DNA of 44,936 nt from Candidatus Gastranaerophilales bacterium (GTDB lineage: Bacteria > Cyanobacteriota > Vampirovibrionia > Gastranaerophilales > Gastranaerophilaceae): contig CALUWL010000007.1 in NCBI GenBank assembly GCA_944324445.1, positions 1 to 44,936 of the forward strand, in the 5' to 3' direction. This document shows, in pieces, positions 8,103-30,244 of this stretch; the stretch's first letter is position 1, and every line of letters starts with the position of its first letter. The position numbers and the translations under genes are program-made. The notes under the pieces were generated by a model that did no database searches, was not told where the DNA came from, and saw nothing but the letters and a program-made list of their open reading frames with translations.

Positions 8103-9827
8103 ATGAATCAACTGATAATGATTTTACTTATAAGTTTACTTATTTTAGTTCATGAAATAGGACATTTTGTCGCAGCAAAAATATTTAAAGTAAGGGTAAC
8201 GCGCTTTGGAATAGGAATGCCTGTTGGACCGTCTTGGAAGCTTTTTAAATGGGGTGATACAGTATTTTATATACATGCGTTTTTATTTGGCGGATACGTC
8301 TCATTTGCCGAACCCGAGCCGAGCGAGCTTAGCGAAAGCTTAGCAAGCGAAGGCGAGGGCAAAAGTGTGCGAAGTGCGAAAGCGGCAAGCGGTGAGCTTG
8401 GCGCAGAGCACGCAGACCGTACTATTGAGCCGAGCGAGCTTAGCGAAAGCTTAGCAAGCGAAGGCGAGGGCAGAAGTGTGTTGAACAATAAGACCGTACA
8501 TCCCGAGAGCCAAGGAGCGGACGACAGTCCAGCGAACGGCTCGAGGGCAGAAGTGTGTGAAGGGCGTGGCGGTGAAGCGAGAAGCTTCAGCGAACAGCCC
8601 GAAATCCGTACTATTGAGCCGAGCGAGCTTAGCGAAAGCTTAGCAAGCGAAGGCGAGGGCAGAAATAAAGATAAAAATGACGATAACGAAACACTACCCA
8701 TTGATTCACCTGAACTATATGAAAATAAAACCATAATACAAAAGTTGATAATTGTTTCAGCAGGTGTAATTATGAATATTGTTTTTGCTGTTATTCTTGT
8801 AATATTTGCAGCAGCATATTATCAAAAACTTCCTGCTTCAATTCAAAATATATATGTAGATGGTTTTTCTAATAAAACAACCTCAACAATAGAAAAATCA
8901 GGAATTATCAAGGGAGATAAGTTTTCTAAAATTAATGATAAAAAAATTAATTCTCTTTATCAATTAACTTTCTTTGCTAAAAATTCAAAACTTTTTGATA
9001 ATTACGCACAAGAAGATTTAATCGAAAAAAATCTTAAAGAACTAAAAAAACTTAATCCAAATATTCAAAATGAAATTAAAGCAGGTACTTCAATAATTTT
9101 ACCTTCTCAAAAATCCGAAAAACCTTTAGAAGTTAATGAAAACGTTCTAAAAGGACTTGAAAAATATAAAAAAGAAGGAATTGAACTGACTAAAAATCAA
9201 ATTGATTTAAGAAATGAATTGTATAATAAAAAAACATATACTTTTAAAAATGAAACAAATTTAAATGATATAGCAACAGCGCTTTCAGATACTTATAAAC
9301 CAGTTAATATAACAATTATAAGAAACGGAAAAGAAATTAATTTCAACAATATAATTGTAAATCAAGAAGGTATGCTTGGTGTAATGCTAAAAATTGAAGA
9401 TGTTTACACCGAAACAAAAACTCCAAAACAAATTATAGAAAAATCAATAAATTATTTATACACAACCACAGCTACAATGCTATATAGTTTATGGCAGTTA
9501 ATAACAGGCAAAGTTTCCGCTTCCGATATGCATGGGGTAATTGCCGTTGTTAAAGTAGGCGGGGATATAATAGCTTCAAAAGGTATGTTAAACGGGATTT
9601 TACTTACTGCAATGATAAGTATTAACCTTGCTATTATGAATTTTCTTCCTATACCTGCGCTTGATGGCGGTCATGTAATGTTTTTATTAATTGAAAAATT
9701 CACAGGTAAAAAACCCGATAGAGAATTCAGCGAAAAAATTAATAACTTTTTCTTTATCCTGTTAATAATTTTAATGATAAGCATTTGTTACAACGATATT
9801 TTTGCTTTAATAACAAAAAAATTATAA
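8103..9827 (+). CDS. rseP: M50 (RseP-type) intramembrane zinc metalloprotease carrying an in-frame repeat insertion
   Basis: Site-2 protease family: it cleaves transmembrane segments of regulators such as anti-sigma factors within the membrane. Zinc motif HEIGH lies at about residues 17-21 in the first TM helix and the second motif PIPALDGGH is near the C terminus. A PDZ-like segment (SGIIKGDKFSKINDKKINSLYQL) and a short LysM-like stretch (LNPNIQNEIKAGTSIILP) lie between them. The conserved GGYVSF strand and the ENKTIIQKLIIVSAGVIMN motif, normally a few tens of residues apart, are here separated by about 118 extra residues from G+C-rich repeats (8311-8664). Frame is kept and the downstream catalytic half is intact, so the enzyme is probably functional with a long Ser/Glu-rich loop. 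RBS AAAGGAG precedes the ATG. At 574 aa it is longer than the usual 350-450. Confidence 0.9.
   Translation: MNQLIMILLISLLILVHEIGHFVAAKIFKVRVTRFGIGMPVGPSWKLFKWGDTVFYIHAFLFGGYVSFAEPEPSELSESLASEGEGKSVRSAKAASGELGAEHADRTIEPSELSESLASEGEGRSVLNNKTVHPESQGADDSPANGSRAEVCEGRGGEARSFSEQPEIRTIEPSELSESLASEGEGRNKDKNDDNETLPIDSPELYENKTIIQKLIIVSAGVIMNIVFAVILVIFAAAYYQKLPASIQNIYVDGFSNKTTSTIEKSGIIKGDKFSKINDKKINSLYQLTFFAKNSKLFDNYAQEDLIEKNLKELKKLNPNIQNEIKAGTSIILPSQKSEKPLEVNENVLKGLEKYKKEGIELTKNQIDLRNELYNKKTYTFKNETNLNDIATALSDTYKPVNITIIRNGKEINFNNIIVNQEGMLGVMLKIEDVYTETKTPKQIIEKSINYLYTTTATMLYSLWQLITGKVSASDMHGVIAVVKVGGDIIASKGMLNGILLTAMISINLAIMNFLPIPALDGGHVMFLLIEKFTGKKPDREFSEKINNFFFILLIILMISICYNDIFALITKKL
8316..8361 (+). 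repeat. 46-bp repeat block, copy 1
   Basis: Identical to the copies at 8427 and 8616. It begins GAGCCGAGCGAGCTT and ends GGCGAGGGCA, with a short hairpin AGCTT-AGCGA-AAGCT (8326-8340). Unlike copies 2 and 3 it is not preceded by CCGTACTATT, so it probably marks the truncated left edge of the cluster. Confidence 0.9.
8427..8472 (+). repeat. 46-bp repeat block, copy 2
   Basis: Perfect copy of the block at 8316, preceded by CCGTACTATT and followed by GAAGTGTG, the junction also seen in the related unit beginning at 8552. Confidence 0.9.
8616..8661 (+). repeat. 46-bp repeat block, copy 3
   Basis: Perfect copy, preceded by CCGTACTATT. The sequence returns to A+T-rich host coding sequence (GAAATAAAGATAAAAATG) immediately after it, marking the right edge of the insertion. 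Confidence 0.9.
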
Positions 9828-28680: not shown

Positions 28681-28725
28681 AATACAGAGGTTTAAAGTTA
28701 AGCTTTAGGCCTCTTGTATTTTTTG
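28681..28725. terminator. Terminator between convergent QueD-like and EamA genes
   Basis: AATACAGAGG (28681-28690) pairs with CCTCTTGTATT (28710-28720) with one bulge and an internal TAAAG/CTTTA helix, followed by a T-run. It overlaps the last codons of the minus-strand EamA remnant. Confidence 0.7.
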
Positions 28726-29370
28726 TTTATTAATAACAATAAAAGAAACACTGCACAATATTAAAATAATTCCAAAAACAGACCTAAAATTCAATCTTTC
28801 ACCAAAAAACAAAACTCCAAAGAAAATTGCGCTCAAAGGTTCAAGAGTGCCTAAAATTGCTGTTTTTGTAGAACCTATTAATTTTATAGCAATATTAATT
28901 GTCTCAATTGAAATGATTGTAGGAAAAATTGATAACATTAAAAGAAAAAATAAATGTTTAGTGCTATCAATCATATCAAGATTTATTCCAAACTTAGAAC
29001 TAAAAACATATACAAATAAACCGAATAACATAGTATAAAAATTTAACTTTTCAGCTTTTAGATGATTTATATATGGAAATTTTTTAACTCCGACTATATA
29101 AAAAGCATAAAGCAGAGCTGAAGATAAAACAAGCAAAATGCCATAAGGATTAATTTTTGAACTTATGTTATTAACCGATAAAAGAAAAATCCCAATAAAA
29201 GCACAAAACATAGAAAACATCACTTTTAAAGTTATTTTTTCTTTAAAAAACGCTGCCATTATAATAGCGGTAAACATGGGATAGACAAATAAAATTGTGC
29301 AAGCTATACCGGAATCTAAAAATCTAAAACTTTTAAACAAAGTTAAAGATGAAAAAGAAAATAATAACAA
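28705..29370 (-). pseudogene. EamA/DMT transporter, N-terminally truncated
   Basis: Reads as an EamA-family drug/metabolite transporter from about its third TM helix: LTLFKSFRFLDSGIACTILFVYPMFTAII matches the end of EamA repeat 1, and the second repeat is complete (GSTKTAILGTLEPLSAIFFGVLFFGERLNF). About 65-75 N-terminal residues (the first two helices) are missing, and a TAG lies just upstream in this frame. The only available start is a weak TTG at 29370 without an RBS. The upstream neighbour is the N-terminal third of a SulP transporter that ends at the same place, so a deletion probably joined the two genes. Function was probably lost. Confidence 0.65.
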
Positions 29371-29771
29371 ATTAAACTACCTAAAATCAAAGCTATAATT
29401 TGAGATGGAATATATTTTATTAAAGACGGGATTGAAGTTATTGAAATTATCATTTGAATTATTGCGCTAAATGCTAAAATTAAAAACACGCTTGAAATAT
29501 CGCCGCTCATTAGCGCGTAAATATTAGCTATAATAATAGTGCTAGGACCAGTAGGACCGGATATTATAGGGCAATTTAGCCCTAATATAGCACCAACAAA
29601 AGATAAAACTATAGCACCCCAAATTCCTGCTACCGCCCCAAGTCCTGATGCTACACCAAAAGCAAGAGCCTGAGGAAAAGCTATTATACTTGCAATAACT
29701 CCGCCAAAAAAATCACCTTTAATTGTATTAATTTTTTTAATCAAAATATGCCCTTGAAATTTTATATACAT
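29343..29771 (-). pseudogene. SulP-family anion transporter, N-terminal fragment
   Basis: The first four or so TM helices of a SulP (SulP/SLC26) transporter: KGDFFGGVIASIIAFPQALAFGVASGLG, AIVLSFVGAILG, LNCPIISGPTGPSTIIIANI and SLIKYIPSQIIALILGS. These match the usual D-l-laG...iPqalAya.laGlpp opening, GPtg and y.P..vi.Gf. A full SulP is about 550 aa or more; here it stops at 142 aa, after a few residues that no longer look like SulP, exactly where the EamA fragment begins. A start at the TTG near 29744, with AAGGG upstream, is an alternative to the ATG at 29771. It is probably a deletion remnant. Confidence 0.65.
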
Positions 29772-29799: not shown

Positions 29800-29833
29800 A
29801 AAAGTCCGATAAGATTAATCTTATCGGACTTTT
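29800..29833 (-). terminator. 34-bp perfect palindrome, terminator of groESL transcription
   Basis: A perfect inverted repeat centred between 29816 and 29817 (AAAGTCCGATAAGATT and its complement), with T-runs at both ends. It is downstream of groEL and the repeat array on the minus strand, so it would end the groESL message with the array included, and insulate the SulP fragment. Confidence 0.8.
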
Positions 29834-29839
29834 ATTTAA

Positions 29840-30244
29840 TTCGTTCTGTTTGTATGACCTCAACGTTTTGACATCACGCCCTTGTATTCTGTCGGGTCAT
29901 TCGTAATTTTCAACAGCGCACAAGCGCTATGTGTCTCCTGTGGAGTTTTACTTTTGTATAACTCCTACGTCGACATAGTAAGGCTTTCGCAATGAGGCAG
30001 GAGTTCTACACTCCTGCCTCATTACTTCACACACTTATGCCTTATTTGTTTTCGCTAAGCCAAGTCTGGCTAAGCTCAAACTACATAAGGTTTTTACATC
30101 ATTCCCATTGCTCCTGAGGAAATCAAAGATTTCCACGTCGCTTTGGTAAGGTTTCGCTCTGTTCGCCAGACCTCAACGGTCTGCCGCCACGAGCTCACAC
30201 ACCATGGGGTCATTCGTAAAACCTAGCGCAGTCGCGCTACGGTT
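29840..30244 (-). repeat. Tandem G+C-rich palindromic repeat array in the groEL 3' region
   Basis: About 400 bp without a credible gene, richer in G+C than its surroundings. Three units can be aligned: a partial one (29840-29934), one from CTCCTG at 29935 to about 30110, and one from CTCCTG at 30111 to groEL. Shared plus-strand landmarks in the last two are CTCCTG, a hairpin, ACGTCG-N5-GTAAGG, TTTCGC, a hairpin and TCACACAC (30027-30034; 30195-30202), ending TACATCATTCCCAT. Partial and last units share GACCTCAACG (29856; 30169) and GGGTCATTCGTAA (29894; 30207). Hairpins include a 14-bp stem (29991-30023), CAGACC-TCAAC-GGTCTG (30167-30183) and a 7-bp stem at about 30119-30135. On the minus strand the landmarks match the M50-gene insertion. 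Confidence 0.8.
29991..30023 (-). repeat. 14-bp hairpin within the array
   Basis: AATGAGGCAGGAGT (29991-30004), 5-nt loop, and the complementary ACTCCTGCCTCATT (30010-30023). On the minus strand the loop is GTAGA, another G...A pentaloop like GTTGA and GAGAA in its relatives. It is followed on that strand by GCGAAAG, as in the other units. Confidence 0.85.

What the first reader, a model, noticed from the sequence alone, without database searches (positions are those of the whole stretch)
8553..8597. The two repeat loci are one family, with a stem that changes sequence but stays paired
Seen: in the M50 gene (plus strand) GTGTGTGA-4 nt-CGTGGCGG-[TGAAGC GAGAA GCTTCA]-GCGAACAG-CC-CGAAA. Downstream of groEL (minus strand, 30202 down to about 30152) GTGTGTGA-3 nt-CGTGGCGG-[CAGACC GTTGA GGTCTG]-GCGAACAG-AG-CGAAA. 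The flanks are identical over 8+8+8 bases; the 6-bp stems differ yet both pair fully, and both loops are five bases G...A. Other units have loops GTAGA, GGTGA and GACA followed by GCGAA or GCGC. Such compensatory change implies selection on the hairpin in RNA or single-stranded DNA. REP elements mobilised by RAYT (TnpA-REP) transposases act through such hairpins with a guide motif next to the stem; GCGAA next to the stem could play that part.
Basis: partly seen in the sequence, partly recalled or inferred. Interest (0 to 1): 0.88.

Follow-up and report, generated by a model that had tools for sequence, protein, structure and literature searches.

The report
Mobile hairpin repeats in gut Gastranaerophilales
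The two hairpins belong to a small mobile DNA repeat, found so far in one family of uncultured gut bacteria, that keeps its folded shape while its letters change and jumps between species to the ends of genes; what moves it is unknown.

Summary
The 3-4 nt "spacer" is an outer stem that also co-varies (GGGC/GCCC versus GCTC/GAGC). A covariance model finds 68 distinct copies: 89.5% of base-pair cells pair, with 238 two-sided changes against 63±8.5 in shuffles. There are 9 outer and 14 inner fully complementary stem versions. A pentaloop GNNRA and an internal loop GTGR/RACA are conserved.

The hairpin is the core of 150-200 nt modular elements, seen only in the Candidatus Gastranaerophilales family of the window (none elsewhere in 292 genomes of the phylum). 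An element of this family, 93-99% identical between genera whose tmRNAs are about 75% identical, sits exactly at the tmRNA 3' end, so it spreads horizontally. Other copies start 0-4 nt after stop codons (groEL, rpsH), at tRNA genes, or in frame inside the M50 gene, with empty sites in relatives.

REP/RAYT membership is not supported: no Y1 transposase in this genome, no tag, and GCGAA is not conserved. G·U pairs are nearly absent from the stems (1.4% versus 8.4% in tRNAs), which favours DNA-level pairing. Nearest known kind: Rickettsia palindromic elements (RPE). The mobilising enzyme remains unidentified.

The parts
8313..8660 (+). whole composite insert inside the M50 gene (A-b-A-A'-B1-A modules), GC 58% against 30% for the window, reading frame kept open
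   Evidence: absent from the M50 gene of G003, G007, G014, G020, G261 and other relatives, present in different module combinations in G001, G013, G023
8552..8612 (+). B1 hairpin module, copy 1: outermost helix AGTGTG 8552-8557 / CGTACT 8607-8612
   Evidence: R1 match 8551-8616, 61.7 bits; fold
8562..8600 (+). outer stem P1 GGGC 8562-8565 / GCCC 8597-8600 with internal loop GTGG 8566-8569 / AACA 8593-8596
   Evidence: sequence
8573..8589 (+). inner stem P2 TGAAGC / GCTTCA with pentaloop GAGAA 8579-8583; CG/CG pairs below it (8570-8571 with 8591-8592) and a G.G mismatch 8572/8590
8313..8360 (+). A-type hairpin module, first of three near-identical copies (others about 8430-8471 and 8617-8660)
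   Evidence: (D1)
8502..8549 (+). second A-type hairpin (CCCGAGAGCC...GGCTCGAGGGCA) directly 5' of B1; the same A type flanks B1 on both sides in G001 and G013
8364..8423 (+). b-type relative of the B module (outer stem GTGC/GCAC, loop GGTGA)
   Evidence: R1 match 8363-8427, 26.7 bits
29828..30259 (-). composite element directly behind groEL; its first A hairpin uses the groEL end ATGGGAATGATGTAA (30259-30245) as its 5' arm, and that 15-mer is repeated at 30108-30094
   Evidence: empty site in G005, G007, G022
30141..30204 (-). B1 hairpin module, copy 2 (outer stem GCTC/GAGC, inner stem CAGACC GTTGA GGTCTG)
   Evidence: R1 match 84.7 bits
30109..30140 (-). C hairpin GCGACGT-[GGAAATC TTT GATTTCC]-TCAGGAGC between B1 and the repeated groEL end
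29975..30035 (-). second B-type module of the groEL element (AAGTGTGTGAAG...GCCTTACT)
29828..29891 (-). degraded third B1 copy (46.1 bits)

Best explanation
The hairpin is the structurally conserved core (module B1) of a family of short, gene-less, non-autonomous mobile repeats of Candidatus Gastranaerophilales. Full units are about 150-200 nt, built from an A hairpin, the B1 hairpin and often a C hairpin. They spread within genomes and horizontally between genera, and settle mainly at 3' ends: exactly at the tmRNA 3' end, at tRNA genes, 0-4 nt after stop codons, and rarely in frame inside a protein linker. Shown here: family, folded structure with two co-varying stems and fixed loops, horizontal spread, filled and empty sites. 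Inferred: the unit is moved in trans by an unidentified enzyme that recognises the folded single-stranded DNA hairpin (fixed loops and internal loop, free stem sequence), much as REP or IS200/IS605 hairpins are recognised, but without a Y1 transposase.
For: Covariation: 238 two-sided changes versus 63.3±8.5 shuffled, 89.5% of cells paired versus 71.3±0.7; 9 outer and 14 inner fully Watson-Crick stem versions. Fixed unpaired parts: 63 of 68 loops are GNNRA, internal loop GTGR/RACA. Near absence of G.U in the two stems, 1.4% versus 8.4% in tRNAs. Horizontal spread: the ssrA copy is 93-99% identical across genera while the tmRNAs are 73-80% identical. The same unit, with its own right end ATTATCTCCA, sits at a tRNA-Lys 3' end in G153. 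Empty and filled sites: groEL, M50, ssrA, rpsH-rplF with 11 filled and 15 unfilled among 26 readable genomes. Near-identical segments (up to 422 nt) at unlinked loci of one genome. Upstream neighbour co-directional in 36 of 45 arrays, p=7e-5.
Against: No mobilising enzyme found: Y1_Tnp absent, reverse transcriptase does not track copy number, and tyrosine recombinases do not either (G021 has 2, probably XerC/D, with 19 or more copies; G007 has 9 with one copy). Single-stranded DNA as the recognised form is inferred only from the missing G.U pairs; the outermost helix P0 does contain G.U (36%) and the 3'-end orientation bias would also fit an RNA role.
Confidence: 0.6

Rival explanations
1. The structure is kept because it works as RNA: a 3'-UTR or RNA-end hairpin that protects or processes transcripts (as REP/BIME elements do), and its mobility is secondary.
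For: Arrays lie on the 3' side of a co-directional gene in 36 of 45 cases, start 0-4 nt after the rpsH stop codon in 11 genomes, follow groEL and the tmRNA; loops GNNRA and GNRA are typical RNA folds.
Against: G.U pairs in the two inner helices are about six times rarer than in tRNAs. A given site is filled in some species, empty in others and filled by unrelated element types in a third group, so no site needs the hairpin.
Confidence: 0.2
2. Palindrome correction: template switching during replication copies one arm onto the other, so the stems co-vary through mutation without selection on the fold.
For: Stem changes go from one Watson-Crick pair to another with almost no G.U or one-sided intermediates; inserts at ssrA contain inverted copies of the host tmRNA T-arm, which a fold-back copying event would leave.
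Against: Correction would also erase the asymmetric internal loop (GTGA/GACA) and the G.G mismatch, yet these are conserved. It does not explain spread to new sites. It may contribute to the covariation.
Confidence: 0.12
3. REP elements moved by a RAYT (TnpA-REP) transposase, with GCGAA as guide motif.
For: Short imperfect palindromes with variable complementary stems and a fixed irregularity, as in REP (PMC3733652, PMC8266576).
Against: No Y1_Tnp in this genome or in 22 of 23 congeners of the sample; no GTAG tag beside B1 in the alignment; GCGAA not conserved; few G.T pairs, which are reported as frequent in GTAG REP stems.
Confidence: 0.03
4. Satellite of a site-specific tyrosine integrase that uses the tmRNA 3' end (core TCTCCA), with secondary sites elsewhere.
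For: Insertion at the tmRNA and tRNA-Lys 3' ends with repeat [AG]TCTCCA at both ends; a truncated integrase-like ORF (HDLRHT...HSDIKTTMRY, read by eye) lies by ssrA in G246.
Against: Integrase number does not follow copy number; G021 and G016 have only two, probably XerC and XerD. groEL, rpsH and M50 sites share no such core.
Confidence: 0.12

Closest known systems
Rickettsia palindromic elements (RPE)
   Same: Short palindromic repeats confined to one bacterial group, present between genes, in frame inside protein genes, and in RNA genes including tmRNA (PMC2229807, section 9); no dedicated transposase known (the related CGTC REPs that include RPE-4/-6, PMC3733652).
   Different: Different host phylum; modular A-B1-C units; measured stem covariation with fixed internal loop; exact placement at the tmRNA 3' end and directly after stop codons; horizontal spread between genera. 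Sequence relation to RPE was not tested.
REP/BIME elements with RAYT (TnpA-REP)
   Same: Imperfect palindromes with alternative complementary stems and a required irregularity; composite arrays; mostly outside genes (PMC3733652, PMC8266576).
   Different: No GTAG tag next to B1, no Y1 transposase in the genome, 60-nt three-helix module, few G.T pairs.
Repetitive or double hairpin elements of mitochondrial genomes
   Same: Mobile hairpins with complementary substitutions, in tandem, in intergenic and rRNA sequence (PMC2800124).
   Different: Bacterial chromosome; larger modular units; preference for gene 3' ends.
IS200/IS605-type single-stranded DNA elements
   Same: Works alike in the proposed recognition of a folded DNA hairpin (inference).
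   Different: No Y1 transposase and no tnpB-type carrier found; direct repeats of host sequence flank several inserts.

Membership tests
REP/RAYT system | RAYT (Y1 HUH transposase) gene in the genome | tested here: not met
   PF01797 search: 0 in G000, 1 of 23 congeners
REP/RAYT system | GTAG (or CGTC) tetranucleotide at the foot of the hairpin | tested here: not met
   B1 flanks are GTGTGTGA / GAAACC; no such tag in the 24-copy alignment. The separate C hairpin has GACG at its 5' foot (CGTC on the other strand); relevance not tested.
REP/RAYT system | palindrome with stem irregularity and complementary stem variants | tested here: met
Rickettsia palindromic elements | in-frame insertion in protein genes | tested here: met
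   M50 gene of G000, G001, G013, G023 filled; other congeners empty
Rickettsia palindromic elements | insertion in RNA genes such as tmRNA | tested here: met
   at the tmRNA 3' end in several genera
Rickettsia palindromic elements | sequence homology to RPE families | not tested
   no RPE set at hand
MITE | terminal inverted repeats and target duplication of fixed short length | tested here: inconclusive
   direct repeats of host sequence of about 6 (M50), 7 (ssrA), 15-18 (groEL) and 22-33 nt (tRNA 5' regions); not one fixed length
Group II intron or other retroelement derivative | reverse transcriptase accompanying copies | tested here: not met
   RVT_1 in 12 of 28 congeners, absent in high-copy G020, G021, G116, present in copy-less G009, G022
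Known structured RNA family | match to an Rfam model | tested here: not met
   no match in the window; in 13 related loci only tmRNA and tRNA
Phage-borne element | copies on viral contigs | tested here: not met
   0 exact matches in IMG/VR for three patterns

The most novel reading that the evidence does not exclude
A previously undescribed insertion system directed to the 3' ends of RNA and protein genes (tmRNA and tRNA ends, stop codons), in which a trans-acting enzyme, neither Y1 transposase nor reverse transcriptase, moves small folded single-stranded DNA units whose stem sequence is free but whose fold and loops are fixed.
Probability: 0.3. Interest if true: 0.85.

Novelty: new variant of a known kind. 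Interest (0 to 1): 0.62.

Why it matters
Small palindromic repeats without a known mobilising enzyme (RPE, CGTC REPs) are a long-standing puzzle. This family gives unusually good material: orthologous filled and empty sites in 28 congeneric genomes, recent transfer between genera, an exact site (tmRNA 3' end), a recurrent site (the rpsH stop codon) and a fold whose free and fixed parts are mapped. That makes the search for the enzyme, and the choice between DNA and RNA as the recognised molecule, directly testable. It also warns that strong base-pair covariation in a repeat need not mean a functional RNA.

Tried and rejected
RAYT/Y1 as mobiliser (absent). Reverse transcriptase (no correlation; the single RT of this genome, G000:C37, lies among integrase-like, DnaB-like and methylase-like ORFs and carries no sign of a maturase, read by eye). 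Tyrosine integrases (no correlation). Viral origin (no hits). Rfam RNA families (none but tmRNA/tRNA). The idea that an element segment complementary to the host site (T') is a targeting guide: attractive for other ssrA inserts whose T-arm copy matches the host species, but for the B1 element the candidate GATGGCG does not change with the host acceptor sequence (CCATC versus CTCGTC hosts), so it is not claimed. Replication-strand bias as cause of orientation: the downstream neighbour shows no bias (17 versus 24). Literature search for repeats in Gastranaerophilales found nothing relevant in the open-access library.

Full report
Observation. Copy 1 (8553-8597 +) lies inside an ORF of 574 aa with a Peptidase_M50 match (E 5e-51). 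Copy 2 (30202-30152 -) lies directly behind groEL (Cpn60, E 5e-76). The module therefore has an outer 4-bp stem, a 4x4 internal loop (GTGR/RACA), a CG/CG or TG/CA step, often a G.G mismatch, a 6-bp inner stem and a five-base loop. A weaker outermost helix pairs GGTGTG or AGTGTG with CGTACC or CGTACT (folds).

Is it more than chance? A 24-copy alignment gave 55 cells with changes on both sides against 17.6±3.0 in shuffles. A covariance model built from it (R1) found 88 matches in the fetched loci, 68 of them distinct: 89.5% of cells paired (71.3±0.7 shuffled), 238 two-sided changes (63.3±8.5), 16 of 19 pairs with two-sided changes, and at most 58 two-sided cells when one strand is slid by 1-3 columns. 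These shuffles ignore relatedness; the slid controls keep it. Counting whole stems, there are 9 different fully Watson-Crick outer stems and 14 different fully Watson-Crick inner stems. Copies with mismatched outer stems such as GTCC/GAGC look like chimeras of two classes. Unpaired parts are conserved in sequence: 63 of 68 loops are GNNRA and two more are GNRA tetraloops.

DNA or RNA? In the outer and inner stems G.U makes 11 of 776 standard pairs, against 46 of 550 in 25 tRNAs of the same loci (p about 1e-9). GTAG REP families are reported to show frequent G.T pairing (PMC3733652). This speaks for pairing in DNA, or for palindrome correction, rather than ordinary RNA evolution. Against pure palindrome correction, the asymmetric internal loop and the G.G mismatch persist. 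The outermost helix is an exception with 36% G.U. Its class II version pairs differently, so it is the least certain helix.

What the hairpin is part of. It is one module (here B1) of composite units. A hairpins stand before it (for example CCCGAGCCGAGCG...GAAGGCGAGGGCA, or one whose 5' arm is the groEL end ATGGGAATGATGTAA), and a C hairpin (GCGACGT-stem-CAGGAGC) often follows. GC content is 58% and 46% in the two window elements, against 30% for the window. Many copies end contigs, as expected for repeats that break assemblies.

Where it occurs. Named genome contigs with an exact 20-base core are 15 Candidatus Gastranaerophilales records and one uncultured bacterium with the same groEL context family, plus single hits in Streptomyces and Solirubrobacteraceae that were set aside as likely chance. 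R1 finds it in 41 of 241 genomes of the order and 19 of 292 of the phylum, all in the window's own family. Some genera hold 10-22 or more copies, others exactly one.

The single-copy loci checked lie mostly at tmRNA. In 8 of 13 loci searched with Rfam a tmRNA lies beside the copy. The element starts right after the tmRNA acceptor end ...TCTCCA and ends in a second ATCTCCA. In its 146-nt core it is 98.6% identical between genera g27 and g29, 99.3% between g27 and g1 and between g29 and g1, and 93% at the lowest between g35 and g27, while the tmRNAs beside it are only 73-80% identical between those genera. Each host keeps its own tmRNA T-arm up to the junction. Flanking DNA was thus not co-transferred: the unit arrived horizontally and inserted at the same nucleotide. 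In G153 the same unit, with its own right end ATTATCTCCA, sits at the 3' end of a tRNA-Lys gene.

Other sites. groEL: elements start at the stop codon in most of the genus; G005, G007 and G022 are empty. rpsH-rplF: among 26 readable genomes 11 are filled by several different element types, all beginning 0-4 nt after the rpsH stop codon, and 15 carry a plain spacer. M50: four species carry different in-frame combinations at one position of an acidic linker, others have a short linker. tRNA-Leu, tRNA-Met and tRNA-Pro 5' regions carry inserts with 20-33 nt direct repeats of host sequence. Among 45 arrays with a left neighbour, 36 neighbours are co-directional (p 7e-5), whereas right neighbours show no bias (17 versus 24), so the preference is for the 3' side of a gene and not for a replication strand. 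The stop-codon preference may partly be a survival filter: insertions further upstream would break the gene.

Mechanism. Shown: mobility, horizontal transfer, precise sites, conserved fold. Inferred: recognition of the folded hairpin as single-stranded DNA. Not found: the enzyme. Y1_Tnp is absent. Reverse transcriptases are missing from high-copy genomes and present in copy-less ones. High-copy G021 has just two tyrosine recombinases, probably XerC and XerD. No copies were found on viral contigs. Remaining candidates are other transposases, XerCD, or host replication and recombination factors acting on palindromes.

Comparison with the known. Rickettsia palindromic elements are the nearest kind: small, palindromic, in frame in genes, and reported in tmRNA and RNase P RNA (PMC2229807); the CGTC repeats that include RPE-4 and RPE-6 also lack a dedicated transposase (PMC3733652). 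Membership in RPE by sequence was not tested. REP/RAYT membership fails on the transposase and on the tag. I rate this a new variant of a known kind: RPE-like or REP-like mobile palindromes, with a larger modular fold, measured covariation, 3'-end sites and an unknown mobiliser.

Noticed in passing
L087-L116 (tmRNA loci of the family), e.g. L112, L111, L116, L069, L073: Other structured inserts sit at the same tmRNA 3' end in genera without B1. Several hold an inverted copy of the host's own tmRNA T-arm that matches the host species base for base (G241: tmRNA GGGGTTCAACTCCCC, insert GGGGAGTTGAACCCC). They look like a different element family or fold-back copying.
   Followed up: partly
rpsH-rplF junction, L234-L260: The stop codon of rpsH is a recurrent insertion point: several unrelated element types start 0-4 nt behind it in 11 of 26 genomes, while a conserved spacer motif GGGTTAAATCG...CGATGCGTTCCCGC is kept.
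   Followed up: partly
L149, L155, L156, L161, L166, L171 behind groEL: A second element type with complementary ends (CGGATTTTGAC...GTCAATAATCCAAGAC) occupies the groEL stop codon in several congeners.
   Followed up: no
window 8363-8427 and related b-type and GCCGGTGCGATAACG-type units (L004, L011, L013, L040): Several further hairpin module families with similar architecture but other sequences are mixed into the same arrays.
   Followed up: no
L010 (tRNA-Leu), L016 (tRNA-Leu), L200 (tRNA-Met), L011/L013/L201 (tRNA-Pro): Inserts near the 5' part of tRNA genes are flanked by direct repeats of 20-33 nt covering the upstream region and the first 10 or so bases of the tRNA.
   Followed up: partly
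L105 (G246), 91 nt behind ssrA: A 99-aa stretch read by eye as a tyrosine recombinase C-terminus (HDLRHTVGTR...HSDIKTTMRYVH) lies next to ssrA, suggesting the tmRNA 3' end is also used by an integrase.
   Followed up: no
window 29343-29771 and 28705-29370 (-): The ORF at 29343-29771 matches only the first third of Sulfate_transp (profile positions 2-116 of 380) and may be a truncated gene.
   Followed up: no
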